NCBI GenBank assembly: GCA_903846015.1
Contig: CAIMZS010000122.1
Coordinates: 1 to 42,977, forward strand
From: an uncultured Anaerolineae bacterium
Lineage (GTDB): Bacteria; Chloroflexota; Anaerolineae; Anaerolineales; Villigracilaceae
Direction: 5' to 3'
Length of the DNA: 42,977 nt
Both the position numbers and the translations under genes were made by a program. The notes under the pieces were generated by a model, which was given only the letters and a program-made list of their open reading frames with translations, was not told the origin of the DNA and searched no databases. Positions 18,961-40,797 of the stretch are shown here, piece by piece. Numbering within the stretch: the stretch's first letter is position 1; every line of letters starts with the position of its first letter.

Positions 18961-18962
18961 AA

Positions 18963-18990
18963 TTATACCGTAAAGTTGGCAAATCTCAAG
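18963..18990 (-). promoter_or_regulatory. Candidate sigma-70 type promoter for rpmH
   Basis: On the minus strand TTGAGA (18985-18990) and TATAAT (18963-18968) are separated by 16 bases. Transcription would start near 18956, inside the 5' arm of the terminator hairpin, giving a leader of about 60 bases before the rpmH ATG. Confidence 0.55.
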
Positions 18991-19014
18991 GGCCAGTTTT
19001 GGGGGTTATTGGGA

Positions 19015-22000
19015 TCAGGTACGGGTGATTTTGGGCTGGCGAAGCGGCATCTGTAAAGAGAAAGTAGTGCCTTTGCCAAGCTGGCTTTCCAGCCAAACCT
19101 TGCCGCCATGACGGTCGATAATGGATTTGACGATGGCAAGCCCCAGGCCAGAGCCTTTTTGTTCGCGGGTTTCGCGCTGGGCAGCGCGAAAAAACTTCTC
19201 GAAAAGGCGCGGTTGGTCTATCGGCGCAATCCCAATGCCGGTATCCTGCACTTCCAGCAAGAAGGTTGCCTGGGTGATGGTCAGACGGACAGCTACACGT
19301 CCTTGTGGCGGAGTGTATTTTATGGCGTTTTCGATCAGGTTATGGATGGCTTGCTGCAGCAAGGCCTGGTCGGCTTCGATGAGAGGAACAGTGTTTTTGG
19401 GGGCTGTGATGGTGAATTCTATATTTTTTTGAGATGCGAGACGCTGGAGAGGCCCAATGGCGCGCTCGAGAATATCAAAGAGAGGAAAAATTTCCAATTG
19501 TAAGCCGACACCGGCTTCGATACGGCCCAGATCAAGCAGATTGTTTACCAGGCGGGCCATGTTCTCAACACCGGAGACGATTTGCCTGACATAGCTCTGC
19601 TGCTGCTCGTTAATGGCGCCAACCAGATCGAGCATGGTGGCATACCCACGAATGAGGGTCAGCGGCGAGCGTAAATCGTGACTGACGGTATTGACGAACT
19701 CTGTTTTCATGGTATCCAGCTCTTTGAAGTGGGTGACATCGCGCAAGATGCAGACGCGCCCGACTGGCAGATCGTTGGCGAGCATGGGGGAGGCGGTGGC
19801 AAAATAGACGCGGCCATCCGGCTGGGTGATTTCGGCAGAAAGCTTTTCGGGTGATTTTGATACCAGAATATCCAGCAAGCCCTGGTGTTGGAGGATGTGC
19901 TGGATGGGTTGGCCTTCGTTTTTCCCCGGAGGGTTGGGCCCTGCTAGAGCGGGCGCTGTCGCGAGGATTTGCCAGGCGGCCGGGTTGGCCAGGATAAGGC
20001 GATTAAACTGGTCTGTAACGATGATGGGGTCGGGGGTCGATTCCAAAATTGCGGCCAGGCGTTGACGGCCCACTTCGGCAGATCTGAATAGATGGTGTTT
20101 GGAGGCTGCCAATGAGGCCTGGCTGGCGAGGGTGGTGAGGAAGCGGATATCTGTTTCGGAGAATGGGTGTTCCTGATCATAGCCAGCCCAGAGGACGCCA
20201 ATGGAACGGTGTTCGTGCCGGAGGGGCAGGGCCATGATTGAAAACGGGAGGAGACTACCAGACTTGGGTTCGAAGATGCTTAAACGGGAAACGCTGGTTA
20301 TGATGATGGGATTCTTTTGGTGGGCAAGCGTTAGTAGTTGGTCATCCAGATGGGCATAGGCATCTTTGCGGGGGCCAAGGGCATAGACAGAGGGCTGGCC
20401 GAGTTGGTCAAATTCATCCAGCGGCGGGATAACAAGGCGGACGGCACTGGCGCCAGTAGCGAGGACGGCTTCCATGACGGGTTGGAGTGCTTCCTGGATA
20501 TCGAGGCTGGAAGCAACCCCTTGACTGACGAGCAGGAGGCGGTTGAGTTCTTCCAGGCGCGACTGCAGACTGACGCGCATTTGCTCAAAAGCGCGGCGAA
20601 GCTGTCCAACTTCATCGACGCCATCGGTGGTGAGGGCGTGGTCAAACTGTCCCTGGGCAATGCGGACCGATTCGTTGGCAAGGGTGTGCAGAGAGGTGGT
20701 GATGCCTTTTAGCCCTAGGCGCAGCGAAATGAGGGCTATGATGGTGAGGACAAGGATGAGGACTGAAAGAGGTGTGGCAATGGTGAGGGCAGTTTGTTGG
20801 GCTTGTTGGGCGGGAATTGTGAGTACGATGGCCCATGAGCGTCCCGGGACTGGTTGGTAATAGACCAGGCTGCGGGTTCCATTGGGGGCAGTGTCTTCAA
20901 AGAAGGTGGGTTGGGTCTTGATTTGACCTGAATAAAGGGTGATGATTTGTGAAAAAACTGGAGAATAGATAATTCGTCCGTTTTCATCCAATAAAATGCC
21001 GCTGCCACCGATTGCGGAAATGGATTTTAAACTGGTGATGAGTGGCTGGGCAAGCGGGTTGGCAGCCAGGTTGGTACGGGCGATGATGACTCGTTGTGTC
21101 TGGCCAGAGGCTTGATCGATGATGGCTGTGATGAAGGATATACGGGCGGCCTGGGCCTGTTGAAGAGCTGGGATGGTGTAATGCTGGCTGATGACGCCAT
21201 TGAAGGCCAGGTCAATGGCGGCGTTTTCTTCAGGGAAGAGGCTGAGTTGTGAGTCGGATGTGGATGGGTAGGCGGCTATAAATTGTTTTGAGTGGTCGAA
21301 GACCAGCATTTGGTCAAAATAGGGTATGGCGCGGATTTCTTGGCCAAGTATCTCAGCCAGGGCACTGCCCTGGGCGGTCAGCATTTCTGGTTTTTGAGAG
21401 GTCTGAAGTGCGAGGTTTTGACCTGTTTCGAGCAAGAAGGGTACGTTTTCAGATGATAATTGTGCTGTGCTCTCTAAGCGATTACGGAGCAAATCCTGGG
21501 CTACTGTTCCGGCTATGAACCAATCGCCAGCGAGCAGGGCAAATAAGAGGGTGATGATAATAGCGCCTGTGCCAAGAAAAAAACGGGCCTCAAGACTGCG
21601 TTGTGCTGGGGATGGCTGCAAGGGTAGCTTGCGCCCCCAGGGTTGAGGAAAAGCGAGAGCCAGAACCTGGGCAAACATGCCTGCGATGATAAGTTCGCCA
21701 GCCCTGGCTAGTGACGCCGCTGCCACACCTGCCAGGGCGTAATCCATTCGGGCTGGCAGGGTGTCCGAGGCTGCCAGGAAGGCATCGATAATGAAGACGG
21801 GTACATAGATGAGCGCCAAGAAAATTGCCGCAATCAACGGTTCGCGTAACAGTCTGAATGTGCGGGTTCGATAGCGCTGGCGAATTGCAAAACTGAATAG
21901 TACCCCGAGGAGTACGAGTTCATTAATTGTAAAAATACTATTGGTATCCCACAGGTAACGGATAATACCGGCAAGCAGACCTAAAAGGGCTGCGGCAATT

Positions 22001-22329
22001 GGCCCAAGAATACCACCGCCCAATAAAATGGGAACCATCGAAAGCAGCATGAGGGCCAGGCCGCGCGGTTCCTGGGGAACGCCTGGCAGTGATAAGGCTG
22101 AGCCGACTGGCAGGCGTACTCCGATAAATAAGTTGGAGAGGATCACAAATATGCTTAGGAAGCCAAGTATGTTCCAATTGCGCATATTCCAGTCAAGTTG
22201 AAGATGACGCCCCATCCACACCAACCAGATAATTAACCCCAAGAAAACGAGCCATCCCAACCAACCAATGATAGAAATTGGCCAGAATGGGGCAGGATTG
22301 GTATCTAGTAACGAGAGGATGATATTCAT
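19015..22329 (-). CDS. Large multi-domain membrane histidine kinase
   Basis: A 1104-residue sensor kinase. Membrane segments occupy about 15-230, with a PILLGGGILGPIAAALLGLLAG part reminiscent of 5TMR/LytS-type modules. Another segment at about 252-275 starts an extracytoplasmic sensor region (275-510; Cache-like) that closes with a helix at about 517-540. Then come HAMP (540-595), GAF (600-745), PAS (755-865), HisKA with His884 in VSHDLRSPLTLIRGY, and HATPase_c with NLIENAIKYT, DTGIGIA and GSGLGLAIV. It senses an external signal; no response regulator is adjacent. No ribosome site precedes the ATG. A copy of the dispersed palindromic repeat lies inside the PAS coding sequence (residues about 789-797). 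Confidence 0.92.
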   Translation of the reverse strand: MNIILSLLDTNPAPFWPISIIGWLGWLVFLGLIIWLVWMGRHLQLDWNMRNWNILGFLSIFVILSNLFIGVRLPVGSALSLPGVPQEPRGLALMLLSMVPILLGGGILGPIAAALLGLLAGIIRYLWDTNSIFTINELVLLGVLFSFAIRQRYRTRTFRLLREPLIAAIFLALIYVPVFIIDAFLAASDTLPARMDYALAGVAAASLARAGELIIAGMFAQVLALAFPQPWGRKLPLQPSPAQRSLEARFFLGTGAIIITLLFALLAGDWFIAGTVAQDLLRNRLESTAQLSSENVPFLLETGQNLALQTSQKPEMLTAQGSALAEILGQEIRAIPYFDQMLVFDHSKQFIAAYPSTSDSQLSLFPEENAAIDLAFNGVISQHYTIPALQQAQAARISFITAIIDQASGQTQRVIIARTNLAANPLAQPLITSLKSISAIGGSGILLDENGRIIYSPVFSQIITLYSGQIKTQPTFFEDTAPNGTRSLVYYQPVPGRSWAIVLTIPAQQAQQTALTIATPLSVLILVLTIIALISLRLGLKGITTSLHTLANESVRIAQGQFDHALTTDGVDEVGQLRRAFEQMRVSLQSRLEELNRLLLVSQGVASSLDIQEALQPVMEAVLATGASAVRLVIPPLDEFDQLGQPSVYALGPRKDAYAHLDDQLLTLAHQKNPIIITSVSRLSIFEPKSGSLLPFSIMALPLRHEHRSIGVLWAGYDQEHPFSETDIRFLTTLASQASLAASKHHLFRSAEVGRQRLAAILESTPDPIIVTDQFNRLILANPAAWQILATAPALAGPNPPGKNEGQPIQHILQHQGLLDILVSKSPEKLSAEITQPDGRVYFATASPMLANDLPVGRVCILRDVTHFKELDTMKTEFVNTVSHDLRSPLTLIRGYATMLDLVGAINEQQQSYVRQIVSGVENMARLVNNLLDLGRIEAGVGLQLEIFPLFDILERAIGPLQRLASQKNIEFTITAPKNTVPLIEADQALLQQAIHNLIENAIKYTPPQGRVAVRLTITQATFLLEVQDTGIGIAPIDQPRLFEKFFRAAQRETREQKGSGLGLAIVKSIIDRHGGKVWLESQLGKGTTFSLQMPLRQPKITRT
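19938..19962. repeat. Dispersed 25-bp palindromic repeat, copy inside the large kinase gene
   Basis: Core GCCCTGCTAGAGCGGGC followed by GCTGTCGC. It lies within the PAS-domain coding region and encodes ATAPALAGP in the sense strand, a different frame from the copies in the two glycosyltransferase genes. The reading frame is intact. Confidence 0.75.
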
Positions 22330-22426
22330 ACAAGCGATCTATTTTATTTTAATTTTTTCACAAAGATTGAGATTGTCTGAACCGCTGATTTACGCAGATT
22401 AGAGCAAGTGCGAGAACCGGGACTAC

Positions 22427-22447
22427 CGCAGAACCGGGTACCATGCT
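22427..22447. repeat. Shared 21-base repeat block, copy 1
   Basis: Identical over 21 bases to 36452-36472; the centre is AGAACCGGGTACCATGC. It lies upstream of the large kinase gene. An ATGCTTATAACA segment at its 3' end also recurs beside the other copy. Confidence 0.75.
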
Positions 22448-22505
22448 TATAACATAGCATATTATGCGTTACTGCCATTATAGCATCTTGTCTGAAGCTG
22501 CCCTG

Positions 22506-22530
22506 GCCCTGCTAGAGCGGGTACTATCGC
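22506..22530. repeat. Dispersed 25-bp palindromic repeat, kinase-plsC spacer copy
   Basis: Core GCCCTGCTAGAGCGGGT followed by ACTATCGC. The outermost stem pair is changed from G-C to G-T, which keeps a wobble pair. Confidence 0.75.
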
Positions 22531-22593
22531 GGATTGACGTTGATTGTGTTGATGTAAATTTTCGCTCCAGGGGAAGCGCCATCTCCTGCAGCG

Positions 22594-23292: not shown

Positions 23293-23364
23293 TTTAGAAT
23301 AGTACCTTGCGGTGTAGCGACCGTGACCATTCTTTTTGATTTTAAATCTATCATCTATGCTCTA

Positions 23365-24042: not shown

Positions 24043-24060
24043 AGGTCGGATAAATCCTTG

Positions 24061-24097
24061 TCTGAACCGCAGATTTACGCAGATTTAGATGATTACG
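24061..24097. repeat. TCTGAACC-type repeat block upstream of cmk
   Basis: Begins TCTGAACCGCAGATTTACGC and continues with a second CAGATTTAGATGATTACG unit. Related blocks start at 22376 and 38464. It directly adjoins a 25-bp palindromic repeat and fills the cmk spacer. Confidence 0.7.
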
Positions 24098-24122
24098 GCC
24101 CTGCTAGAACGAGCACTATCGC
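24098..24122. repeat. Dispersed 25-bp palindromic repeat, upstream of cmk
   Basis: Core GCCCTGCTAGAACGAGC followed by ACTATCGC; one stem position (G to A) is unpaired. It joins the TCTGAACC block on the left and the 31-base shared block on the right. Confidence 0.75.
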
Positions 24123-24149
24123 AATGACAATCGGATTAGTGCAAGGGCG
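24119..24149. repeat. Shared 31-base repeat block, copy 1
   Basis: Identical over 31 bases to 25974-26004; the centre is AATGACAATCGGATTAGTGC. It ends 13 bases before the stop codon side of the GT-C gene. It partly overlaps the tail of the palindromic repeat. Confidence 0.8.
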
Positions 24150-24162
24150 GGAGCGGGACTGG

Positions 24163-25860: not shown

Positions 25861-25918
25861 GATGGGTTTATTTTAGTTTAGATTTCCAATTTATGTGCAG
25901 GTTGTGTTGTCTGAACCG

Positions 25919-25943
25919 GCCCTGCTAGAACGGGCACTGTAAG
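25919..25943. repeat. Dispersed 25-bp palindromic repeat, GT-C/DUF2298 spacer copy
   Basis: Core GCCCTGCTAGAACGGGC with intact stem, followed by ACTGTAAG rather than the usual ACTATCGC. A TCTGAACC start lies just before it (25910-25917). Next to it is a GAGATTGCCACGCC, then GGCTCGCAATGACA segment, an inverted-repeat type common in bacterial spacers. Confidence 0.75.
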
Positions 25944-25973
25944 ACGAGATTGCCACGCCGCAAAGAACGCGGC

Positions 25974-26004
25974 TCGCAATGACAATCGGATTAGTGCAAG
26001 GGCG
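25974..26004. repeat. Shared 31-base repeat block, copy 2
   Basis: Identical over 31 bases to 24119-24149. It ends 2 bases before the stop codon of the stand-alone DUF2298 gene, so it would be part of that gene's 3' untranslated end. Confidence 0.8.
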
Positions 26005-26006
26005 AG

Positions 26007-28436: not shown

Positions 28437-28469
28437 CAGATTTTCCGTTTTGGTGCTAGTCTGAACCGG

Positions 28470-28494
28470 GCCCTGCTAGAACGGGCACTATCGC
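28470..28494. repeat. Dispersed 25-bp palindromic repeat overlapping the DUF952 stop codon
   Basis: Core GCCCTGCTAGAACGGGC followed by ACTATCGC, the consensus form. TCTGAACC lies at 28460-28467. On the minus strand its end supplies the last sense codon CGA and the stop TAG (28488-28490) of the DUF952 gene. Confidence 0.85.
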
Positions 28495-28859
28495 AGGGTT
28501 GCGGGTAAATCGAACTTGCCGAGGGTGTTTAATGGAAAATCAAATTCTTTTTCAACGGCATCGTAATTGAGTGGGCCATAAATGTGTGGAAAGTTGTTGT
28601 CCGAGGTTGGCGCAGTTGCGGAGGGCCGAGGGTGAACCGGGGCCTCAAATTTCAACTGCGCGGCCAGGCGAGTTGGGTCAATTGCCAGGATTACCAGGTC
28701 TTTTTGGCCGGTATAAAAAGCGTTGGCAACATCCAGGATCTGGAAGATTTGTGAACAGTGGATAAAGCCCTCAATTGCCAGGCTTTCAGTTTGGTATTCG
28801 CCGGTTTGGCGGGCTTGCAGGGCTGCGCTGCGGGTTGTGATATGGTAAATGAACGTCAT
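28488..28859 (-). CDS. DUF952 family protein
   Basis: A 123-residue cytosolic protein. It shows the family pattern IYHITT, then EGFIHCSQ (about residues 30-37), DLVILAIDPTRL and FPHIYGPLNYDAV. The DUF952 fold resembles ADP-ribosyl-transferase-like proteins, but no reaction is established for it. The ATG overlaps the stop of the giant upstream gene as ATGA, so it is translationally coupled. The last codon and stop lie inside a dispersed repeat, so the natural C-terminus may once have been different. Confidence 0.87.
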   Translation of the reverse strand: MTFIYHITTRSAALQARQTGEYQTESLAIEGFIHCSQIFQILDVANAFYTGQKDLVILAIDPTRLAAQLKFEAPVHPRPSATAPTSDNNFPHIYGPLNYDAVEKEFDFPLNTLGKFDLPATLR

Positions 28860-31800
28860 GGCAGCACCTGGTAAATGGCAGTATCGGCATCGCTGTAAAC
28901 ACGCTGCCAGAGCGAGCTGCTGCCGCGTTCAAATTTTGCCACGCCTTCGGGGGTGTACATGCCGCGCTCTTGTTGACCTACGACGATGTATTTGACGTCA
29001 TATTTGGTCAGGAATGCCTTTGCAGCCTCACTATTACCAGTGTTGTAGAAGTCTGTGATCTCCTGAATGCGACTCGTCACCCAATCGCCGGGGAACAATG
29101 CGCGCTGCTGGCGCTGATGCCAGCTCCAGCCAGCCACACCGGGCAGCCCGGTATAAATCGTAAAGCGTGTACCCCAGCGGTATTCAACGGTATTGGCCTC
29201 CACGATTACTGGAGAACCTTTTACATTGTCCTGCATCCAGCGAATAGCCCGGTAGTCCTGGCTGAGGTCCATGTCTGTCTGGTCTGAAAAGTGCGAGTAT
29301 TGCATGTAGGTGATGGTATCAAAGGTAAAGGGGATATCAGCTGCCATACGATCCCTGATTTTATCCATGCTGGCGGTAAAAGTGAAAAGCAAAGCGCCAG
29401 ACAGCAAAGCACCACCCAAAACCGGGAAGATTATTTTGCCCAGGCGGCCCCATTCGTCAAATTCGGTCAGGATCCAGCCCAGGGAGGCTGCCGCACTGAT
29501 GGCAAACAACACCCACACCTGCAGATAGAATTTGAAGACCGTATTCATACGGCCGATATCGCCTGAAAGAACGATAAACTCCACAATAAGTGTCAGCACA
29601 ATTCCTGTGCCAATCATAAACAAAACGAGACGCTTCACGTCGGGCTGACCGGGGCGCAGGATCAACACCAGCGCCCAAACAGCTATTGGGAAAGCGAACC
29701 ACGCCACAGGAACATCCAGGAAGAATTGCAAGGTCAATAGAATGACCAGCGCAGCCGCCAGCGTAATTTCGATAAGCAGTTCAAAGCGCTTAAGCTTTAC
29801 CAGTGCAGAAATGGGCGTTTGGGCCAGCCACTGGCGGGTCTCCCAGCTCATCCACGCTGTAATAACAAACAAGAATAAACCCCAATGCGTCCAATAAGAC
29901 CAGATGGGTGTCTTTTCGTTTGTCCATTGGCTGATTTCACTATAAGCCAACCCATACCATTGGGCAAATGGTTGGTAGAGTACCAGCGCAAATCCTACCA
30001 GCAGGCCCATACCCGCCAGGGCAAAGAATACACGTTGAATGATTGGAGCCAGACCGAAGCGTTTCTCAGTCCCGACATCTGCGTATCTAAAAATGGCATA
30101 ACCAGTGACAATGGAACCGAACGCCAGGTAGGTGGGGAAGTCCCAGGTATTCGTCGGGCGCAGAACACCGATGACCAGCCCGCCAAAGCATAAAGTGACC
30201 AACCAGGACCAGATGCTGAGCTTTCGCGCCAGAAGCGTGGAGGTCGTCCAGGCAATACCAAGCAGTGTCAGCGGCAGGGCGATCATGTGGGCGTGCAAAT
30301 CGCTGTAAAGGAAGGTAAATAGCGGGAATTCTGTAATTGCCAGGTCTCCAGTCGGCATAACCCGGCTGGGAGCCCAGTAGTATTCGCCCCACCCGATTGA
30401 CAGGGATGCCCCTTGAATTAATCTGCCGATGCCTTCCAATGCCCAACCCATGTGTTGGAAAATGGATCCATTGGTAGCATCCACCATTTCGTTGGTGACG
30501 ACCAATTTTTGCAAGGCGTGATAAATCAACTGGATGGTACCCAGATTGCCGATCAATACCAAAGCGACCGCAGCAGAAATCCCTGCGATCAATTGGAAGG
30601 TGAAGGCCGAAATACCCGGGTTGTTTTTGGCTGTAAAGCCTTCCATCAGGTTCCACGCCACTGAGAAACCGCCGATGCCAAGCATGGCAAACAATGTCGG
30701 CAGAACAAAGTTATATGCAATCGAAGGCACAATGCCGAGTAATTTTATCGGCGTGCCAACCAGGACAAAACCCCAATAGTAATAGTTAATATAGCCGCCC
30801 GCATACCAGGGATCGTAGGGTGGAAAACTGGTGCTTTTCAGGACGGCGTTCAAGTACGAGAAATCCATCGGGCGTTCACCGCCGCGGGCAGGGTGCCAGA
30901 GATCGGGATTGCCGAGGCGAATGGTGAGATCAATCAGGAAGAGGGCAAGGAACAGACCTTCAACGATCAGGTAATATTTTCCCTTGGTGCGAATTTCCTG
31001 GCGGATTTCATCGCGTTTGAGGTAAAAAGCAACTGAGCCAAGCGCCACGATCAAAAGATAGACTGCCGCAATGGTCGCGCGTGAGTATTGGCCTCCTAAC
31101 GATGCAATCAACCAGACGATATATGCCATCAGAAGCAGACCGGTTAGCCGGGCGAGAGGGTATCCTTTGTCCGACAGACCGGGAAGCGCAAAGCGCAGCA
31201 AGGGCCATGTGAACAGCCCAAGCAAGCCAATTGCCAGATACCAGATCAAGAGACCCACAACGGGGTACTTGTTTTGGATGGATTCGTATGAAAACAACTC
31301 GCTCCAGGTGCCGCCCGCGCGATCCACATTGAGACGGTCAATCGGCAGCATCAGATCCCCGGGATAGCGAGCCGCCTGGCCTGGCGTAATATGGACAACA
31401 TGGCTCAGATCGACTGCGCCCAGCAAATTACGGATATTTTGCGAATTGTAGGCAGCGGTTTTCTTGAATAGCAGAACTTTGGGAGCATCGTAAACGGTGA
31501 ATGATTCTTCGGCATACTGAGTGTTGAACTGATGCCCAAAGACTTCCGGATAGGAAGTGAATGTCTGAATCAGGTCAAAACCGAGTTTTCCCTTGAACAT
31601 TCCGGGGGTAGCCTCGTTGTAACACCAGATGATATCTTTCTCTGCCGGACAACCGATCAGGTTGCGGTAATAAGCGCTGGTTAATGGATAACGTTCCGGC
31701 ACGCGGGTCGTTGTGGCCCATTGGCGGTTTGATGAGATGAAAATATAATCTCCGGCATCCAGATTCGTTTCAAAGCGGGTTAACTTATCGGCGTTGTCAT

Positions 31801-34063
31801 CCCAGTACATCTCGAAATTGAGATCACCCTGGAATATGCCGCCGAAAGCATCAAAGCCATCCATTCGCAATGGCAAACCATCATCCCAGGAAGTCTCCTG
31901 GATAGGAGCGCTTCCAATCAGGGCCAGCGGGCCGGTAGTAACGATTCGCAGCAAGTAATTGCGGCCCTTTTCAAGCGCAGTGGGTTTATTCAATTTGAGC
32001 GTATATGCTTCGCCGCGTCGATCAGATTTGATTGCAAAATCTGAGATTAGTTTGCCGTCAGTCAGTAAGTTTTCAGGAGATGGTCCCACATCGGTGTAGA
32101 CGTTAATGGTCAGCGATTGAGAAGCCGGGTCACCAACATTGACGGCATGCGCAATGAATATTTCAGTCAGATCACCGGAGGCAAATGCCGTGAAGCGAAC
32201 ATCATAAGGCAGTTCCGGGGTGAGTGTGTACCCTGTTGGGATGGACATGGGCTGGGTAATGCTGGTGCCATCCGGCTGCTGGATTTTCAGGTTATATGGC
32301 CCAGGGATATTTTGATAGATCCAGTGGGTGGCCTGTACGCGGCTGTGATCGCGGGCATAAATTCTTGTGAACCCATAAGCCCAGGCAAAAGTTGCAATCA
32401 GAACGCCAAGCCCCACGGTGCCTGCCAGCCAGGGAGAAAGCTTGACCCATAACAGCCCCAATCTTTTGGCCGTGGCCCTGGCCGTGCTAGAACCGGCACT
32501 ATCGGCCGTGCTAGAACCGGCACTATCGGCCGTGCTAGAACCGGCACTATCGAGCGGTGGGGGTTCTTGGGATTGCGAGTCTTTATTTTTCGAGTTTGCG
32601 TCCAGACCCTGGACGGTTATCCAGGCTGCCATCAAAGCCAACAGTGGATAAATTGGCAATTGGTAGCGCATATTGGGGTTCGATTGGGTGGATTGCCAGA
32701 TAAAATACGCCCCTGTCCAACCCCAAAGCAATAGATACTCTTTCCATTCGCCTCGCAGGATGCGCCAACCCATATAGATAAATCCGAGTGCAGCCAGGAT
32801 GCCAAGAGGCCAACCCAATCCCCAGGCTTCCATGTTGTATCCCGAAAAAAGGAAGGAGCGTCGAGCCCATTGTAATGCGGGTGGAAAGTCCACATCGCCG
32901 CTGGCCTGGGCGCGTTGTTCCGTGATATTTGCAACCCATTTGGGATTGGGTGTTATCCCGAAGAAACCCGGTCCACTGAAAGCATAGGGCATGAAAACGC
33001 GGAAGGCCAGGATGGATATGAACCCGCCCAGGACTAGCAGCGCGATCATGGTTTCCATCGACATGGCCCAGTACTTTGTGCCGGATGGATGTTCTTCGAT
33101 TTCGGATGCTTCATCGAGAACTACAGTTGGCTGGTCGGCGTGGTTTTTATGTTTTCTGAAGTACATAATCGCCAGAGCGCCGGGCAGCAGTACAGCCAGG
33201 GGCGCAGCGTTGATTTTGGATGCTACTGATGCCCCGAAAGCCAGGCCAAAGCCGATCACATTCCAAAATAAGGGGTCGCGGATGATGACCGACAGAATAG
33301 CGGATATTGCAGCACCTATCCCTCCGGGCTCCTTTCCTGCGATGGAAGCGGGTGGCGCGGCCTCACGGGGGCCCTCGCTAACCATTATTTGAACCGCAAA
33401 ATAGATCGCCAGGAACATGAAGAAATTGGCAAACATATCCACGGTGAAGAAGTGCGACTGTTGGATCTGCATCACAGCCAGGGATGAGAATGCAGTCGCG
33501 AGAGTCGCAACCTTGCGCCCATAAAGCTGTGAGGCGATCAGGTACAACAGCACCAGCGTACCCATATCCGAGAGGGCTGAGAAAAAGCGCCCCACCAGGG
33601 CGACTTCATCGTATCCGGTCCAGTTGGGCGTTTTGCCCAGTGCGTTCATGAGTGGACCAAACAAGCCATCTGCCCCATTTGCCTGGACATTTTGCGCTGC
33701 CCAGGTTGTTATGGATGACATTGTTTCTGCCGCATAGCGGACGATAACGATCGGCAGGTCACCATAAACATAGAAGTTGAAGCCGCGATTATGTGGATTA
33801 AGCGTTGAAGTGTCGGTGTTAAAGTAGTCTGATAAACTTTGTACTGGTGCGATGGCTGATTCAACCATGGTCATAAAACGTTCATCTGGGTGCAGGTGCT
33901 GATTTTGATCCCAGTTGAGACCGCTGAAACGAAAATATCCAGCTACAAGCAGGGTCAGCAAAAAGAGCACATCATAAATCCAAAGGCGTATACGGGAATT
34001 ATTCATTTTGATTTTAAATCCACCGGCTGATTTTGATTTTAGAGATTGCAGGTCAAGTGCCAT
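28856..34063 (-). CDS. Giant fusion: GT-C glycosyltransferase + DUF2298 membrane protein
   Basis: A membrane protein of about 1735 residues. The N-terminal half is a PMT/GT-C module: first membrane helix, then the external acidic motif HPDERF (Asp60, Glu61), more helices to about residue 490, a hydrophilic linker (504-528), another helix and a beta-rich external domain (about 555-900). From about residue 930 on, it repeats the whole of the DUF2298 neighbour (PPYDPWYAGGYINYYYWGF, EFPLFTFLYSDLHAHM, RMNTVFKFYLQVW, KYIVVGQQERGMY). I start at ATG 34063, where GAGG lies 7 bases upstream; a start at 34150 would overlap the upstream gene by 83 bases. The linker carries three tandem DSAGSSTA units from the dispersed repeat. 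Likely role: transfer of a lipid-linked sugar to surface glycan. Confidence 0.85.
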   Translation of the reverse strand: MALDLQSLKSKSAGGFKIKMNNSRIRLWIYDVLFLLTLLVAGYFRFSGLNWDQNQHLHPDERFMTMVESAIAPVQSLSDYFNTDTSTLNPHNRGFNFYVYGDLPIVIVRYAAETMSSITTWAAQNVQANGADGLFGPLMNALGKTPNWTGYDEVALVGRFFSALSDMGTLVLLYLIASQLYGRKVATLATAFSSLAVMQIQQSHFFTVDMFANFFMFLAIYFAVQIMVSEGPREAAPPASIAGKEPGGIGAAISAILSVIIRDPLFWNVIGFGLAFGASVASKINAAPLAVLLPGALAIMYFRKHKNHADQPTVVLDEASEIEEHPSGTKYWAMSMETMIALLVLGGFISILAFRVFMPYAFSGPGFFGITPNPKWVANITEQRAQASGDVDFPPALQWARRSFLFSGYNMEAWGLGWPLGILAALGFIYMGWRILRGEWKEYLLLWGWTGAYFIWQSTQSNPNMRYQLPIYPLLALMAAWITVQGLDANSKNKDSQSQEPPPLDSAGSSTADSAGSSTADSAGSSTARATAKRLGLLWVKLSPWLAGTVGLGVLIATFAWAYGFTRIYARDHSRVQATHWIYQNIPGPYNLKIQQPDGTSITQPMSIPTGYTLTPELPYDVRFTAFASGDLTEIFIAHAVNVGDPASQSLTINVYTDVGPSPENLLTDGKLISDFAIKSDRRGEAYTLKLNKPTALEKGRNYLLRIVTTGPLALIGSAPIQETSWDDGLPLRMDGFDAFGGIFQGDLNFEMYWDDNADKLTRFETNLDAGDYIFISSNRQWATTTRVPERYPLTSAYYRNLIGCPAEKDIIWCYNEATPGMFKGKLGFDLIQTFTSYPEVFGHQFNTQYAEESFTVYDAPKVLLFKKTAAYNSQNIRNLLGAVDLSHVVHITPGQAARYPGDLMLPIDRLNVDRAGGTWSELFSYESIQNKYPVVGLLIWYLAIGLLGLFTWPLLRFALPGLSDKGYPLARLTGLLLMAYIVWLIASLGGQYSRATIAAVYLLIVALGSVAFYLKRDEIRQEIRTKGKYYLIVEGLFLALFLIDLTIRLGNPDLWHPARGGERPMDFSYLNAVLKSTSFPPYDPWYAGGYINYYYWGFVLVGTPIKLLGIVPSIAYNFVLPTLFAMLGIGGFSVAWNLMEGFTAKNNPGISAFTFQLIAGISAAVALVLIGNLGTIQLIYHALQKLVVTNEMVDATNGSIFQHMGWALEGIGRLIQGASLSIGWGEYYWAPSRVMPTGDLAITEFPLFTFLYSDLHAHMIALPLTLLGIAWTTSTLLARKLSIWSWLVTLCFGGLVIGVLRPTNTWDFPTYLAFGSIVTGYAIFRYADVGTEKRFGLAPIIQRVFFALAGMGLLVGFALVLYQPFAQWYGLAYSEISQWTNEKTPIWSYWTHWGLFLFVITAWMSWETRQWLAQTPISALVKLKRFELLIEITLAAALVILLTLQFFLDVPVAWFAFPIAVWALVLILRPGQPDVKRLVLFMIGTGIVLTLIVEFIVLSGDIGRMNTVFKFYLQVWVLFAISAAASLGWILTEFDEWGRLGKIIFPVLGGALLSGALLFTFTASMDKIRDRMAADIPFTFDTITYMQYSHFSDQTDMDLSQDYRAIRWMQDNVKGSPVIVEANTVEYRWGTRFTIYTGLPGVAGWSWHQRQQRALFPGDWVTSRIQEITDFYNTGNSEAAKAFLTKYDVKYIVVGQQERGMYTPEGVAKFERGSSSLWQRVYSDADTAIYQVLP
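32480..32551. repeat. Three perfect 24-bp tandem copies of the dispersed repeat, in frame
   Basis: Units 32480-32503, 32504-32527 and 32528-32551 are identical. Each holds GCCGTGCTAGAACCGGC and ACTATC, and encodes the 8-residue unit DSAGSSTA on the minus strand. Because 24 is a multiple of 3, copy-number changes keep the frame. Relative to the consensus, one C and its hairpin partner G are both swapped (C-G to G-C). Confidence 0.92.
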
Positions 34064-34067
34064 TCTG

Positions 34068-36338
34068 TTACCTCTGCGCGTTATCGGGTATCGAGTAAAT
34101 CCAGAAATTTTTACCCTCGAGTGGGCTGGTAAAGTGACCCACTTGTACAAATGGATAGAGCTTGCGCAGCGCAGCCAGCGTATCTACGTCTTCTTCTTTG
34201 ACGATAAATAATTTATTACCCGGCGTAGCCAGTGTTTTGGGGAGATCATCACGCGAGACTGCATAATCCTTGCTAGGATAGCCTGCCTGGATACCTACCA
34301 GCCGAGTATCCACCCAATAAGGATAGGGTACCACAAAGGCATTGTCTGGGCTGTTACCAGCATCGACAAAAGAGCGTATTACCTTGCCTATGTCAGATGT
34401 GTTCCAGGCCTTGTCGAGGAATTGTGATGCAAAAGTATTAAAGACCAGGTTGTAATTTTGAAGGGAGGAAACCAGCAAAAGCAGGATCACTACACCGGCA
34501 GCAAATCCACGTTTTCGGGCGGCGCCCTGTATCGATTGTAAACCAGTGTAGATGCCATCCAGCGCCATTGCGGCGATGATAAAAACGATCACAGCCGCAG
34601 CGCCGGTGCGGTTTAGCGATGGATTCTCACTGGGGAATGCCAACGAGAGAATGGATGGCATTAATAGCGTCGGGACTGACAGGATTAGGAACAGGTCAAG
34701 CCAGTGACGGTTTCGAAGGTAGCGCGCAAGTAGAAATAAATACCCGATCAGAAACAATACCGCCGATACTACGTCTAATGCCGGGCGGTGAGGAATGGAA
34801 TGTACCCAGGTCTCGCCGTTATCATAATAGAACATGGTCATCGCATTAAATGTATTGCTGATGAATATTTGCCAGGCTGGGTCTTTGAGCGGCTGCTCAA
34901 TCCCTGTAAGACGGGTCATGGTGCGGTATGAGAACGATTCCTGATTTTGAATGATATAACGCATCAAGGGAATGAAAACCATGAAGGAGGCTAACACCAG
35001 GATGGAAAAAAGCATCATGGTTTGCTTGCGATTGCCAACGGATTGTTTGTGCAGTAAATACAAAGCCAACCCCAGCAGGGCAACAAACGGTACAAACCGG
35101 AAGGGGCTGTAGCCATTCAATCCCAGGCCCAGGAACAATCCAGATAGAATAAAGTCATTGCGATTCTGACGGCGCAAACCTCGGATCAGGTAATACAGGG
35201 TAGGCGCAGCAAATGCCGGGTAAAGTGGAAAACGCAGCCCGATCCGGCTGATGGTATTCAGCCAGTATGAAGTTCCTGCCAGGATAAGGGCAAACATTGC
35301 CACGCGCTTGCCGCCAATTTCTTTGCCGAGCAGGTAAATATACGGCATGGTAAATAAACCGATCAGGGCAGTCCCAAGTTTAAGACTGAAAAAAGTTAGT
35401 CCTGTATTAAACAAAATGGAAACCAACGCAGTCCAATAGAATTGGATGAACTCGCGGCCAGTATTGCGTGGGAAGAAAATATGTGTTTGGCCCTGGGTTA
35501 CATCGAACACATCCAGCAATTTTTCGGCGTGGTCACTGAATGGTTCACCGGGGACGCCGTCCAACCTGTAAAAACGGAAGAATATGACCAGCGCGGCAAC
35601 CGCAAAAAGTAGCACGCCCCAGCGCGTGATGGATAGCTGCCACTTGTCGCGTTTGAAAAAATCCACCACCTTTGTAAAGAATGCGGGCTTGCCAGGATCG
35701 CTGAGCCATAACCCGCGAACAAACAAACCCATTGCTGCCAGCCAGATGGTGACATTGATAGATGTGAACAGGTTGTTGTTTAAGAGAATGAAAGCCGAAA
35801 GTGCCAGCAGCATGGCATAAATAAGCGTCTTGCGCCGGTAGGTCAGAGGGTCTTTTTGAATGGGGGCATCTTCATCAGCAAGCTGGGGCTTTTGAACGAT
35901 ATCAGCCCTGCTAGAACGGGCGCTGTCGTGGGGATAATGTAGGTCTGGCAGCGAGAATTCGTTTAGCATGTATGCCCAGACCAGCAGGACAAGCGCGAAG
36001 AAGTATAGGCTAAACGCAAGCACAAACGAATCAGCAGGTGGTTCAAGGGTTCGTTGGGCAAGGAGTGCCAGCCCAAGTGCCAGGAATACTTTCCAGGGGA
36101 ACTGGGCGGCCGTGGCTGGAATGGTTCTGGTTACTGGGATAGCGTCCTCTGCCGCGTTGGAGGATGGCGAAATATCCAATAAATCCGGTTCGCCAGGGGA
36201 ATCCTGGATTTGTTGGGGCTGATTGGGAGGGAAGGGCTCCTCCACCGTGGCGGATGCATTCCAGGGAATTTGAATCTTTTCTTTTTGCCAGGGGTTGAGT
36301 CTGGATTTTAGATAATCAAGGATACTGGGCTCTTTCAT
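34068..36338 (-). CDS. GT-C type membrane glycosyltransferase (PMT family)
   Basis: A 756-residue protein. A long, proline-rich cytoplasmic N-terminus (1-80) is followed by two helices, a second hydrophilic loop (about 128-165) and then a polytopic GT-C core. The core shows RLDGVPGEPFSDHAEKLLDV and LGTALIGLFTMPYIYLLGKEIGGKRVAMFALILAGTS, followed by the typical SRIGLRFPLYPAF and LGLGLNGYSPFR. A small external C-terminal domain ends it. It would move a sugar from a lipid carrier on the outer face. Its stop lies 4 bases before the giant fusion's start, so the two are coupled. Residues about 136-144 (DSARSSRAD) come from a dispersed repeat copy. Confidence 0.83.
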   Translation of the reverse strand: MKEPSILDYLKSRLNPWQKEKIQIPWNASATVEEPFPPNQPQQIQDSPGEPDLLDISPSSNAAEDAIPVTRTIPATAAQFPWKVFLALGLALLAQRTLEPPADSFVLAFSLYFFALVLLVWAYMLNEFSLPDLHYPHDSARSSRADIVQKPQLADEDAPIQKDPLTYRRKTLIYAMLLALSAFILLNNNLFTSINVTIWLAAMGLFVRGLWLSDPGKPAFFTKVVDFFKRDKWQLSITRWGVLLFAVAALVIFFRFYRLDGVPGEPFSDHAEKLLDVFDVTQGQTHIFFPRNTGREFIQFYWTALVSILFNTGLTFFSLKLGTALIGLFTMPYIYLLGKEIGGKRVAMFALILAGTSYWLNTISRIGLRFPLYPAFAAPTLYYLIRGLRRQNRNDFILSGLFLGLGLNGYSPFRFVPFVALLGLALYLLHKQSVGNRKQTMMLFSILVLASFMVFIPLMRYIIQNQESFSYRTMTRLTGIEQPLKDPAWQIFISNTFNAMTMFYYDNGETWVHSIPHRPALDVVSAVLFLIGYLFLLARYLRNRHWLDLFLILSVPTLLMPSILSLAFPSENPSLNRTGAAAVIVFIIAAMALDGIYTGLQSIQGAARKRGFAAGVVILLLLVSSLQNYNLVFNTFASQFLDKAWNTSDIGKVIRSFVDAGNSPDNAFVVPYPYWVDTRLVGIQAGYPSKDYAVSRDDLPKTLATPGNKLFIVKEEDVDTLAALRKLYPFVQVGHFTSPLEGKNFWIYSIPDNAQR
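35905..35929. repeat. Dispersed 25-bp palindromic repeat inside the PMT-family gene
   Basis: Core GCCCTGCTAGAACGGGC followed by GCTGTCGT. It encodes DSARSSRA in the cytoplasmic loop, the same reading frame as the tandem copies in the giant fusion gene (DSAGSSTA). Confidence 0.82.
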
Positions 36339-36429
36339 GCGAGCATCTCTTTCCTAATTTAATTGGAATAATGGATATGGTTTCATTGGCCGTGCAAGTG
36401 CGTGTCTGAACCGGGGCTTGTCTGTACCG

Positions 36430-36454
36430 GCCCCGCTAGAACGGGCACTATCGC
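36430..36454. repeat. Dispersed 25-bp palindromic repeat, methyltransferase-PMT spacer copy
   Basis: Core GCCCCGCTAGAACGGGC followed by ACTATCGC. The stem is intact; one loop base differs from the consensus (T to C). Confidence 0.8.
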
Positions 36455-36472
36455 AGAACCGGGTACCATGCT
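36452..36472. repeat. Shared 21-base repeat block, copy 2
   Basis: Identical over 21 bases to 22427-22447. It follows the palindromic repeat here, whereas in the other spacer it precedes it by 59 bases, showing that blocks recombine. Confidence 0.75.
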
Positions 36473-36517
36473 GGATGCTTATAACAACAATAGCGTCTAC
36501 ATGGCAGGGCTATTTTA

Positions 36518-37300: not shown

Positions 37301-37303
37301 GCC

Positions 37304-38461
37304 TTACCGGGGGGAAATATTTTTGAATAATTTCTCATATTCTGCTGCAATGGCATCAGGGTCGTATATACGCGCGATTTCAGCCGGGTCGCGACGATAT
37401 TTTTGAGGTTGTGCCAGGATTTCAAGGATGGCGTTGGCGAGCGCATTGGCATCTCCGATTGGGGTAACCTGGCCCATGCCAGTCATCTCAACCGGGCGGC
37501 GCACCCCGGGTAGGGCGGATGCAACGCATGGAACATTGTTTATCATGGCCTCAATTTGTACCAGGCCAAAGGCCTCGGTGGAATTCAGGCTGGAGACAAC
37601 CAGTACATCCAGATTCGGATAATAGGCAGCCATCTGGGCCGGGTTCTGGTTACCGAGGAACTTCCAGTGGCCGCTTTGTTCAAATTGGCGAATAACGGGA
37701 ATCAACCGGTCAAAATAGGCCTGTTCCCCCATCACGTTCAGGTGCTGACCTGCAAACAAGACCTGGGCATTGGGATATTTTCCCAAAACTTTCGGGAGTG
37801 CTTTTAGCAGAATTTCTACACCCTTTTCAGATGCAAAACGTGTGGCCATGCCAATCACTGGCCGTTTGGTGTCTGTCTGATGGGCTGTGCCGAGTGCTTC
37901 GATTGCGCCTTTTTGAGGCGTAGGCAGCTGAACAGGGGGCAAAATGGGGGTCAGTTTGTGTTTGTAATGGGAGAGAAATGGTGAGTGATCGGCGTAATCC
38001 TGGGTGTAGGTGACAATATGGTTGGCAAGCAGTGCGGCAGTATTATTCTGAAAATCCACCACATGGTTCACAATACGGTTAAATAAACCTGCCGGCAGCT
38101 GTAAATCGCAATGGTAGGTGAGGATTGCCAATTTCCCCAACAAGCGCGCGCGCGCTGTAAAGCCAGGGGCATCAAACTGCGGAAGATGTAATTGGACGAC
38201 ATCGTTCTCGGCAACATATTTCCAGGCGAGAAAGCCAAGTGTCGGCATGAGCACGCCCTTGCTGATCCGCAGCGCAACAGGAGCGCGGACGATCCGAACG
38301 CCATTTCGCATTTCATCAGTCGGAGTGGATGGATCGAAACGGGAGGTCAGCACAGTAACCTGGTGACCGCGTCGCGCGAATGCCTCTGCCAGACGTTCGG
38401 CATAGATCGTCAGTCCAGAGGTATGAGGCCGGTAATAGGTGAGGGCAGTGAGTATTTTCAT
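37304..38461 (-). CDS. GT4-family glycosyltransferase
   Basis: A 385-residue GT-B glycosyltransferase that uses nucleotide sugars at the cytosolic membrane face. The N-terminal acceptor domain starts ILTALTYYRPHTSGLTIYAERLAEAFARRGHQVTVLT. The C-terminal donor domain shows PVIGMATRFASEKGVEILLKALP and an STEAFGLVQIEAMINNVPCVAS segment with the E-x7-E pattern of GT4. It resembles the GT4 enzymes that work on phosphatidylinositol or polyprenyl carriers. The ATG is preceded only by 2 bases and then the inverted end of a MITE-like repeat, so there is no recognisable ribosome site. Confidence 0.9.
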   Translation of the reverse strand: MKILTALTYYRPHTSGLTIYAERLAEAFARRGHQVTVLTSRFDPSTPTDEMRNGVRIVRAPVALRISKGVLMPTLGFLAWKYVAENDVVQLHLPQFDAPGFTARARLLGKLAILTYHCDLQLPAGLFNRIVNHVVDFQNNTAALLANHIVTYTQDYADHSPFLSHYKHKLTPILPPVQLPTPQKGAIEALGTAHQTDTKRPVIGMATRFASEKGVEILLKALPKVLGKYPNAQVLFAGQHLNVMGEQAYFDRLIPVIRQFEQSGHWKFLGNQNPAQMAAYYPNLDVLVVSSLNSTEAFGLVQIEAMINNVPCVASALPGVRRPVEMTGMGQVTPIGDANALANAILEILAQPQKYRRDPAEIARIYDPDAIAAEYEKLFKNISPR

Positions 38462-38463
38462 GG

Positions 38464-38664
38464 TCTGAACCGCAGATTTAGATGATTACGCAGATTAGGG
38501 CAAGAGCAAGAACCGGGTACACGGCGATAAATCGCCGTGCTATAGCTTTTGTAGTAACGACTTTAGTCGTTTAGCGAGGAAAAGCAATGAAAGTCGCCGC
38601 TACCATGCAAAATCATTATCTGAAAAACTATAGTATCGTAATTAGCGACATTCTGCGGTTCAGA
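38464..38664. mobile_element. MITE-like element with 13-bp terminal inverted repeats
   Basis: The 201-base stretch starts with TCTGAACCGCAGA (38464-38476) and ends with its exact reverse complement (38652-38664). It has no coding capacity. Inside are two perfect small palindromes: ACGGCGAT with ATCGCCGT (38521-38538) and ACGACT with AGTCGT (38557-38570). The left end matches the TCTGAACC blocks found in five other spacers. It lies between the epimerase and the GT4 gene and touches the GT4 start region. No clear target duplication could be defined. Confidence 0.65.
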
Positions 38665-38673
38665 AAAATTCAT

Positions 38674-39693: not shown

Positions 39694-39695
39694 TC

Positions 39696-40730
39696 TTACT
39701 CCTGGTTTGAATCGGTCGCAGGCGGTGTCTCCGCGGAGCGCGATTGGAATTTGATCAATTGTTGATAAATACCCGAAACCGTCTGACCTTCACGAGAGAG
39801 GCCATACAGGCCGAAAACACCAATGTAAAGATAATTAAGCACACGACTCGTCAGGGCGACAGCCAGCGCCGTTGCCTGATTGCCTGAAAGCAATGTCAGC
39901 GATCCGGCCATGGCGCCTTCGAGTGTTCCGACGCCCCCCGGCAGCGAAGGTATTGCCCCGCCAAACGCGGCTGCGCCAAGCACGAACATGCCCCACACCA
40001 CGGTGGCCTGCGGGAAAAATGCCAGGCATAATAAATAATATTGCACAATCGCCATGCCCCAGTTAAACGCCATCAAAAGGAAAAAGCGAATAAACAAACC
40101 CGGGTCGGTCAATACTTCCAGCCCCGCAAAAAATGCTTCCAGGAGACTGCCGCCAGTTTGCTGCAGCACGGGCCAGCGTGTGCTAAGACGGTGGAAAATA
40201 TTCAGGGCCCACTGGCGGTTTCGCGCCAGCAGATACATGGTGACCAGCCCCACTACCACCGCGAAGCCGACGATAAAGCCTATCCGGTCAGCACCCTGCG
40301 CGCCAACCACAAATGGCACCGCTGCCACGAAAATCGCGGCAGAAAAAGCCAGGTCAGCAACACGTTCAATGATAATGGTAGGCAGGATCTCCACGAATTT
40401 CATTTCAGATTTTCGGCTGAGCAAAAAGGCGCGGCCCAATTCCCCCAGGCGAAAAGGGAGAAAATTGTTCAGCAGATAACCTTCCATGATGGTCAGAAAA
40501 ACATCGCGCCAGGAGGCCCGGTTGCGCAGCAGGGTGCGCCAGACCAATGCGCGCACCATCAACCAGAGCATGCCCAGAACCACTCCAATGAGCAGGTAGC
40601 CAACATTGGCGGCTTGTATGGCTGCAAGTGTCAGCCTTAAGTCTACAAAATACAAAATAACGGCCACCAGAACAAGGCTGACGATCAATCCCGGCAGCAT
40701 GCGGCGTAAATTTTTGATGGTTTCAGACAT
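39696..40730 (-). CDS. YbhN/UPF0104 family membrane protein (LPG-synthase-type flippase domain)
   Basis: A 344-residue protein with about eight membrane segments. The family hallmark is MEGYLLNNFLPFRLGELGRAFLLSRK (about 83-107), then ILPTIIIERVADL and the glycine-rich AFGGAIPSLPGGVGTLEGAM. Related domains flip lysyl-phosphatidylglycerol in MprF; stand-alone proteins near glycosyltransferases are thought to move or help move lipid-linked intermediates. No synthase domain is attached. AGGGAG lies before the ATG. The epimerase follows after 2 bases. Confidence 0.87.
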   Translation of the reverse strand: MSETIKNLRRMLPGLIVSLVLVAVILYFVDLRLTLAAIQAANVGYLLIGVVLGMLWLMVRALVWRTLLRNRASWRDVFLTIMEGYLLNNFLPFRLGELGRAFLLSRKSEMKFVEILPTIIIERVADLAFSAAIFVAAVPFVVGAQGADRIGFIVGFAVVVGLVTMYLLARNRQWALNIFHRLSTRWPVLQQTGGSLLEAFFAGLEVLTDPGLFIRFFLLMAFNWGMAIVQYYLLCLAFFPQATVVWGMFVLGAAAFGGAIPSLPGGVGTLEGAMAGSLTLLSGNQATALAVALTSRVLNYLYIGVFGLYGLSREGQTVSGIYQQLIKFQSRSAETPPATDSNQE

Positions 40731-40796
40731 TCCGCTCCCTACACGGCGATAAATTGCGGTGCTAGTTTCGGCCCTGCTAGAACGGGCACTATTTCG
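40731..40796. repeat. Repeat-filled spacer between lepA and the YbhN-like gene
   Basis: The whole spacer is made of repeat blocks. ACACGGCGATAAATTGCGGT (40741-40760) is a variant of the palindromic segment inside the MITE-like element, and next to it lies one 25-bp palindromic repeat. No promoter is evident. Confidence 0.65.
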
Positions 40797-40797
40797 C
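40771..40797. repeat. Dispersed palindromic repeat touching the lepA stop codon
   Basis: Core GCCCTGCTAGAACGGGC followed by ACTATTTCGC, two bases longer than the usual tail. Its last base coincides with the end of the lepA stop codon. Confidence 0.78.

What the first reader, a model, noticed from the sequence alone, without database searches (positions are those of the whole stretch)
19938..40797. A 25-bp imperfect palindrome dispersed at nine loci in one orientation
Copies with core GCCCTGCTAGAACGGGC and tail ACTATCGC (small variations) occur at 19938, 22506, 24098, 25919, 28470, 32480 (three tandem), 35905, 36430 and 40771. All read the same way on the plus strand, antisense to every gene. 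None was seen in 1-19,900. It has no ORF and does not look like a classical REP or IS end that I recognise. Uniform orientation, intragenic copies and clustering suggest a small mobile or replicating sequence family, possibly driven by a transposase elsewhere, or a replication-linked motif.
Basis: seen in the sequence. Interest (0 to 1): 0.85.

Follow-up and report, generated by a model that had tools for sequence, protein, structure and literature searches.

The report
Tiny 24-letter jumping DNA repeats
A bacterium related to uncultured Anaerolineae carries hundreds of copies of a 24-letter hairpin sequence that has repeatedly been inserted, letter-exact, between and inside its genes, an apparently mobile piece of DNA of unusually small size whose way of moving is unknown.

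Summary
In detail: 11 copies at nine sites, all on the plus strand, against 0.13 expected. The window's genome holds 388 copies at up to 3 mismatches, one relative (G008) 3, nine other genus members none. Copies are insertions: joined flanks match a place elsewhere for 61 of 192 arrays (shuffled partners 19-22; offsets of 2 nt 0-1), and two genes where it could be sized carry 8 extra residues. Insertion follows YG, leaves no target duplication, and also lands in the element's own loop. Two of four stem pairs covary. A sibling 23-nt family follows C-N-N-T, like its own end CCAT, but only 2 of 55 empty sites were found. Orientation is uniform only locally; genome-wide it is 202:186. Best explanation: micro mobile elements that work like the small dispersed repeats (SDRs) of Nostoc, inserting as single-stranded hairpins. 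Insertion is shown; the route and enzyme are inferred. No driver gene was found. New variant of a known kind.

The parts
19938..19961 (+). 24-nt element copy, type a (GCCC/GGGC stem), inside ORF 19015..22329 (-); 8-residue gap in all 4 relatives aligned
22506..22529 (+). 24-nt element copy, type a, directly preceded by a second GCCCTG; between ORFs
24098..24121 (+). 24-nt element copy, type a, after AGATGATTACG; between ORFs; no copy at the aligned G008 site
25919..25942 (+). 24-nt element copy, type a, after TTGTCTGAACCG; between ORFs; no copy at the aligned G008 site
28470..28493 (+). 24-nt element copy, exact type a; between ORFs; no copy at the aligned G008 site
32481..32504 (+). first of three head-to-tail copies, exact type b (GCCG/CGGC stem), inside ORF 28856..34150 (-), read as DSAGSSTA
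32505..32528 (+). second head-to-tail copy, exact type b
32529..32552 (+). third head-to-tail copy, exact type b
35905..35928 (+). 24-nt element copy, type a, inside ORF 34068..36338 (-), read as DSARSSRA, within a 22-residue stretch missing in G008
36430..36453 (+). 24-nt element copy, type a, directly followed by the right part of a sibling element c
36454..36469 (+). CAGAACCGGGTACCAT: right part of sibling element c after the copy at 36430
22429..22444 (+). CAGAACCGGGTACCAT: right part of sibling element c
24058..24085 (+). module TTGTCTGAACCG/CAGATTTACGCAGATT without insert: example of an empty target
40771..40794 (+). 24-nt element copy, type a with changed tail; between ORFs, just before ORF 40797..42596

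Best explanation
The repeat is a very small mobile element of 24 nt, one of a set of related hairpin families in this lineage (24-nt a/b, a 23-nt sibling c). The unit folds on its plus strand into a 4-bp stem with loop TGCTAGAAC and a 7-nt 3' tail ending in CG. It inserts letter-exact, without target duplication, directly 3' of YG. Family c sits 3' of C-N-N-T (mostly C-N-W-T). In both cases the flank resembles the element's own 3' end (CG; CCAT), so each inserted copy recreates a target at its right end, which would explain head-to-tail arrays; and since its own loop holds TG^C, copies also nest in copies. Being 24 nt it adds 8 codons and can persist in genes in its four open frames. Shown: unit length, precise insertion of a/b, hairpin, left target, nesting, arrays, spread in one species. 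Suggested: the own-end rule and the insertion of c. Inferred: that the moving form is single-stranded DNA handled in trans by an HUH-type (Y1) nuclease, as for IS200/IS605 ends. The enzyme is not identified.
For: 388 copies vs 3 in G008 and 0 in nine other genus members. Sharp unit borders. With matches at the own locus left out, joined 13+13-nt flanks match elsewhere for 61 of 192 arrays, 35 of them at a junction outside any a-d unit; shuffled partners 19-22 (9-13); offsets of 2 nt 0-1. One match is identical over 59 nt across the junction, on another contig. 8-residue gap in 4 of 4 relatives at 19938; net 8-residue gap in 6 of 6 rhamnosidase homologues at another copy. YG^C at 102 of 156 arrays vs 4.2% background. 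Nesting: in 34 of 156 arrays the right flank is the remainder of an a/b-, c- or d-like unit, in 26 of these with a fitting left part; of 14 with a resolved a/b- or d-like outer unit, the outer stem can pair in 12. Covariation at pairs 4-14 and 1-17, 0 of 2000 permutations; 90.9% of cells paired vs 76.0% shuffled. Family c: C at -4 in 85%, T at -1 in 96% of 55 copies, no fixed base to the right.
Against: No Y1 or RT locus examined has a unit in its fetched stretch, and Y1 matches are as common in relatives without the repeat. The stem starts at the first base of the unit, leaving no room for the guide tetranucleotide that IS200/IS605 and REP hairpins carry 5' of the foot. For a/b the own end ATCG ranks only 15th of 256 4-mers as predictor of the left flank, only YG is firm; subfamily d goes against the rule in the register tested (0.5 matches vs 1.0 background). 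a/b prefer C on the right, c do not. Family c has only 2 of 55 empty sites (shuffled 0-1); the 14 of 61 came mostly from tandem copies and their own locus. 131 of 192 a/b arrays have no match elsewhere, and 26 of the 61 match only inside units. A left offset of 6 nt also gives 43 of 192, because many left flanks end in the hexamer that starts the unit. Pairs 2-16 and 3-15 show no covariation, and the number of pairs changed on both sides and of further pair types is not beyond shuffles (287 and 40 of 500). One solved homologue of the rhamnosidase has a net 6-residue, not 8-residue, gap. No strain-level filled/empty data were available.
Confidence: 0.58

Rival explanations
1. Same micro mobile element, but moved through an RNA copy: the hairpin, as part of a transcript, is reverse transcribed and the copy inserted, the route proposed for Nostoc SDRs (recalled).
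For: At pair 2-16 the plus strand shows U.G 32 times and C.A 3 times (19 and 3 among distinct sequences). The two genomes that carry the families have the most reverse-transcriptase matches: 5 in G000, 8 rows in G008, 0-3 in nine other members.
Against: No RT locus examined has a unit in its fetched stretch. At pair 3-15 the wobble contrast is small (7 vs 4). Insertion into mRNA before copying would favour sense copies; intragenic arrays are 30 antisense to 19 sense. These genomes are also among the larger ones.
Confidence: 0.2
2. A REP/RAYT system: the unit is a REP hairpin spread by a TnpA-REP.
For: Short hairpin, hundreds of copies, stem covariation; one G000 Y1 match lies in an ORF of about 209 aa. 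GTAG REPs are reported from Chloroflexi (passage of PMC3733652).
Against: No GTAG/GTGG or CGTC tag at the hairpin foot; 4-bp stem and 9-nt loop instead of 7-20 and 2-5 nt (definition); all 8 a/b pairs under 200 bp have the same orientation, not inverted; Y1 genes not flanked by units.
Confidence: 0.06
3. A cellular binding or uptake signal (DUS, Chi, KOPS or terminator-like hairpin) kept by selection or molecular drive.
For: High copy number, strong conservation, local orientation concordance.
Against: Copies are net insertions in genes and modules, not point-mutated sites; nesting; nine of ten genus relatives lack it; no genome-wide polarity.
Confidence: 0.03
4. Slippage and rearrangement of intergenic modules produce copies, without a mobile unit.
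For: Head-to-tail arrays, mosaic intergenic modules, arrays at contig ends.
Against: 143 of 156 arrays are single units; insertions in unrelated genes; sharp borders with a target motif.
Confidence: 0.05
5. Tiny MITEs of a classical double-strand transposase.
For: A separate larger MITE-like family is present in the same genome.
Against: No inverted repeat over the whole unit and at most 1 bp of target ambiguity, so no target duplication; 24 nt leaves no room for two transposase sites (inference).
Confidence: 0.04

Closest known systems
Small dispersed repeats (SDRs) of Nostoc punctiforme (Elhai et al. 2008; recalled, paper not held; SDR5 insertion in HIP1 seen in a passage of PMC4390886)
   Same: 21-27 nt size, dispersed, hairpin with compensatory changes, precise insertion at a short target, nesting in own kind, limited to a small group of relatives (SDR side recalled)
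   Different: Other phylum; here 62 of 184 sampled copies lie inside reading frames; target is YG rather than HIP1; no sequence comparison was possible
IS200/IS605 ends and single-strand transposition (PMC6006769, passages)
   Same: Hairpin on one strand, insertion 3' of a short flank motif, a terminal motif at the right end; no target duplication (recalled for the IS family)
   Different: 24 nt with one 4-bp hairpin and no guide tetranucleotide; no linked transposase
REP / REPIN with RAYT (PMC3733652, PMC3116915, PMC6006769, passages)
   Same: Short hairpin repeats in hundreds of copies with stem covariation
   Different: No GTAG/CGTC tag, short stem and long loop, no inverted pairs, no linked RAYT
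Rickettsia palindromic elements (mentioned in passages of PMC3733652; in-frame insertion recalled)
   Same: Palindromic repeats found inside genes
   Different: Much longer (recalled) and tagged CGTC

Membership tests
SDR-type very small mobile repeats (features recalled) | unit of about 21-27 nt, dispersed in many copies | tested here: met
   24 nt, 388 copies
SDR-type very small mobile repeats (features recalled) | hairpin supported by compensatory changes | tested here: met
   pairs 4-14 and 1-17 covary, 2-16 and 3-15 do not; alternative helix none
SDR-type very small mobile repeats (features recalled) | precise insertion, empty sites, nested copies | tested here: met
   for a/b; for c only 2 of 55
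SDR-type very small mobile repeats (features recalled) | sequence relation to Nostoc SDR families | not testable with these tools
   paper and its sequences not held
REP | GTAG/GTGG or CGTC tag at the hairpin foot | tested here: not met
   unit and flank profile; definition
REP | basal stem 7-20 nt, loop 2-5 nt | tested here: not met
   4-bp stem, 9-nt loop
REP | linked RAYT gene | tested here: not met
   no a-d unit in the fetched stretches around both G000 Y1 matches
IS200/IS605-derived miniature element | insertion 3' of a target motif without duplication | tested here: met
   a/b:
IS200/IS605-derived miniature element | guide sequence 5' of the hairpin, hairpin at both ends | tested here: not met
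   one hairpin starting at base 1; definition
IS200/IS605-derived miniature element | parent IS with the same ends | tested here: inconclusive
   only the G008 TnpA locus was inspected, no a-c similarity at up to 7 mismatches
Rfam RNA family | match to a described family | tested here: not met
   no match in the window at gathering threshold

The most novel reading that the evidence does not exclude
Units of 23-24 nt with a single hairpin form a self-targeting micro-transposon class: each inserts 3' of a motif like its own last bases, so every insertion makes the next target. They would be among the smallest mobile DNAs, outside cyanobacteria, moved by an unidentified single-strand nuclease, and they add 8-residue peptides to proteins.
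Probability: 0.3. Interest if true: 0.85.

Novelty: new variant of a known kind. Interest (0 to 1): 0.62.

Why it matters
How units too small to carry two protein-binding ends can spread precisely through a genome is, to my knowledge, open since SDRs were described in Nostoc (recalled). Here is a second lineage, in another phylum, with hundreds of copies (81 of 213 in the sample exact), empty and filled sites in one genome, related hairpin families, and sister species without it. That makes the target rule, the moving form and the missing enzyme testable. It also shows a route by which 8-residue peptides enter proteins in frame.

Tried and rejected
REP/RAYT, uptake or polarity signal, slippage and double-strand MITE were weighed and rejected as listed. 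The alternative helix 4-7/16-19 shows no covariation. Local hopping: neighbours under 10 kb share orientation, but subtype only marginally (2-5 kb, p 0.033) and private changes not clearly (5-10 kb, p 0.051; other bins not). Orientation against GC skew: 87 to 62 at +-5 kb, weak. Orientation against genes: 70 antisense to 45 sense (intragenic plus co-directional intergenic), weak; type a 30:14, type b 40:31. Orientation concordance is not significant when permuted inside contigs (p 0.138) and absent between c copies. Viral contigs: no exact match to the a/b or c pattern. Rfam: none in the window. Literature, by listings only: (Chloroflexi, dispersed repeats, palindromic) found no paper; searches listed none that I recognised as describing such units in Chloroflexota; a passage of PMC3733652 does report GTAG REPs in Chloroflexi. 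One search was a mistake of mine: the pattern does not fit the family (0 in the own genome), so it says nothing. Subfamily d gave no clear target in the register tested. Searches used 66 of the 103 distinct units; the other 37, nested halves and units with various further changes, were left out by eye.

Mended on checking: the empty-site tests did not leave out matches at the copy's own locus, which tandem and nested copies can give. One search repeats them with the own locus (+-400 nt) left out: the a/b result stands (61 of 192), but the c result falls from 14 of 61 to 2 of 55. One search was not filtered in this way: 46 of its 236 queries have a junction match of at least 75% local identity, and some of these are tandem or nested self-matches; the 59-nt case cited is on another contig. 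The ORF caller leaves out ORFs that overlap a longer one, so it missed ORF 34068..36338 and the copy at 35905; 62 of 184 is thus an undercount.
Full report
OBSERVATION. The 17-nt core occurs 11 times at nine sites in the window, all on the plus strand, with none before 19,938; shuffles give 0.13. The window is contig C122 of a 6.51-Mb, 662-contig genome (97.41% complete, 5.85% contaminated). That genome has 238 exact matches to GCCSTGCTAGARCSGGC, 0 for the reversed control, and 388 places within 3 mismatches of the 24-mer, 202 forward and 186 reverse.

DISTRIBUTION. Of 61 genomes (own plus 60 relatives) only the own and G008 hold the exact core. At 3 mismatches G008 has 3 copies and nine other genus members none. 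G008 is the genus member that aligns best to the window's right part. A scan of the genome collection (84,980 species; the window's own or near records may be left out) finds the exact 24-mer in one record only, of an uncultured Anaerolineae bacterium, on a contig of the same length (82,247) as the G008 contig with the match. No viral contig has an exact match. With 81 of 213 sampled copies exact, the expansion looks recent and nearly species-specific.

THE UNIT. A profile of 184 copies (up to 4 mismatches) in a 905-kb sample shows conservation at positions 1-24 and a sharp fall outside, apart from G at -1 (86%), C or T at -2 (51 and 40%) and C at +1 (65%). Positions 23-24 are CG whether the left flank is CG or TG, so there is no target duplication beyond one ambiguous base. 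The sample was taken from contigs with matches, so it is not used for density. Two main types differ at positions 4 and 14 together: C..G (a) and G..C (b).

STRUCTURE. Over 103 distinct sequences (up to 5 mismatches, nested halves included) the highest mutual information is between positions 4 and 14; 4-14 and 1-17 exceed all 2000 permutations, 2-16 and 3-15 exceed none. On 66 of these sequences the stem 1-4/14-17 is paired in 90.9% of cells versus 76.0% shuffled (0 of 500) and at most 50.4% when slid; cells with both sides changed are 31 versus 11.1 (0 of 500), but pairs changed on both sides (3 versus 2.7) and further pair types (9 versus 7.1, 40 of 500) are not beyond shuffles. At pair 2-16, T-G occurs 32 times and C-A 3 times; at 3-15, 7 and 4. 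This leans towards the plus strand as the folding strand, RNA or single-stranded DNA, with the caution that copies share ancestry.

INSERTION. For arrays (tandem copies merged) the 13 nt on each side were joined and sought in the sample. Searches (47 of 147; 61 of 188) did not exclude the copy's own locus. One search does, in the 1.20-Mb sample: 61 of 192 arrays match elsewhere, 35 at a junction outside any a-d unit (by my reading of the list, 22 of these in plain modules such as TGTCTGAACCG^CAGATTTACG, the rest at diverged units or array ends) and 26 only inside units. Shuffled partners give 19-22 (9-13 outside units), offsets of 2 nt 0-1, of 3 nt 0-2, of 1 nt 6-10 as expected from the 1-bp ambiguity; a left offset of 6 gives 43, because many left flanks end in the hexamer that starts the unit. 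The best long case is identical over 59 nt across the junction. In genes: at 19938 the copy is an 8-residue addition against all four relatives aligned. In a rhamnosidase gene (L061:5030-8002; Pfam) one copy gives a net 8-residue and a second, diverged copy a net 12-residue gap in 6 of 6 homologous sequences; the solved homologue 6gsz has a net 6-residue gap at the first and 12 at the second. At 35905 the extra stretch is 22 residues against G008, and at 32481 the region is too variable to size.

IN GENES. 62 of 184 copies lie inside greedy ORFs and 5 overlap an edge, against a coding fraction of 0.879, so copies are depleted from genes. Those inside use the four frames without a stop (the other two would end the ORF and so cannot be counted): AVLEPALS, RARTGTI, DSAGSSTA, IVPVLARP. 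ORFs were called by length only and overlapping ones dropped, so the count is approximate and misses the copy at 35905.

TARGET, NESTING, ARRAYS. YG^C flanks 102 of 156 arrays (23 of 49 intragenic, 71 of 93 intergenic, 40 of 52 exact copies, edges left out in the latter three) versus 4.2% background. In 34 arrays the right flank is the remainder of another unit (a/b-, d- or c-like), in 26 of these with a fitting left part; of 14 with a resolved a/b- or d-like outer unit, the outer stem can pair in 12. Of 156 arrays 143 are single; the rest have 2-5 units. Arrays also sit at contig ends, so longer ones may break the assembly.

SIBLING FAMILY. TGCCCGTGCAGAACCGGGTACCAT (c) has 138 places in the own genome and 22 in G008 at 3 mismatches, none in 59 others. 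Its tandem period is 23. Among 55 copies without a c copy directly to the left, the base at -4 is C in 85% and at -1 T in 96%, the right flank is mixed, and its own end CCAT ranks 3rd of 256 4-mers as predictor of the left flank; for a/b the end ATCG ranks 15th with YG as the firm part, and d goes against the rule in the register tested. Direct proof of insertion is thin: 2 of 55 with an empty site elsewhere, shuffled 0-1, offsets 0.

ORIENTATION. Neighbouring a/b clusters agree in 75 of 104 cases (0 of 5000 permutations); 61 of 74 pairs at 2-5 kb agree, 19 of 41 beyond 20 kb. Permuting inside contigs is not significant (p 0.138). c copies do not show it. Gene strand explains little.

DRIVER. 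Y1_Tnp: 2 matches in G000, 0-3 elsewhere in the genus. RVT_1: 5 in G000, 8 rows in G008, 0-3 in the others. None of eight such loci (seven of G000, one of G008) has an a-d unit at up to 4 mismatches in the fetched stretch, of which two are whole contigs of only 3.5 and 4.8 kb. The TnpA locus of G008 shows no a-c similarity.

COMPARISON. By size, hairpin, insertion, nesting and narrow distribution the element works like the small dispersed repeats of Nostoc (Elhai et al. 2008; recalled, not held; a passage in PMC4390886 tells of SDR5 inserted between nucleotides 3 and 4 of HIP1). Membership by sequence could not be tested. It fails REP criteria and lacks the guide of IS200/IS605 ends, but lack of duplication, a left motif and a similar terminal motif are what that mechanism gives, so a single-strand route is my preferred inference.

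VERDICT. A real, precisely inserting micro mobile element with related hairpin families, not seen in print for this phylum in the searches named. The insertion of a/b is well shown; the rule for c and the mechanism are inferred.

Noticed in passing
window 38548-38636: Part of a MITE-like repeat; 23 BLAST matches (itself included) in the 1.20-Mb sample, the 15 other ones listed 92-98% identical; k-mer extension suggests ends CTATAGCTCTTCAGA and TCTGAAAAACTATAG.
   Followed up: partly
window 38518-38542 and 40740-40764: Another near-perfect hairpin repeat, ACGGCGATAAATCGCCGT type; 31 matches at up to 4 mismatches in the sample, both strands.
   Followed up: partly
G000 contigs, a/b copies: Orientation of neighbouring a/b copies agrees over a few kb but not beyond about 10 kb, without a clear link to gene strand or GC skew.
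   Followed up: partly
window 22373-22421, 24058-24158, 25907-26013, 38461-38517: Intergenic regions are mosaics of shared modules (TTGTCTGAACCGCAGATTTACGCAGATT, GATTACGCAGATTAGAGCAAG, TCGCAATGACAATCGGATTAG), several of which serve as targets.
   Followed up: partly
G008:C192 and C231, G000:C149: Head-to-tail arrays of sibling element c with a 23-nt period at contig ends.
   Followed up: no
L228 1069-4223: A G000 Y1-domain ORF (209 aa) lies directly upstream of an 835-aa ORF with a P-loop (GGPGSGKTT) and, read by eye, a formylglycine-enzyme-like C-terminal part; possibly a functional pair.
   Followed up: no
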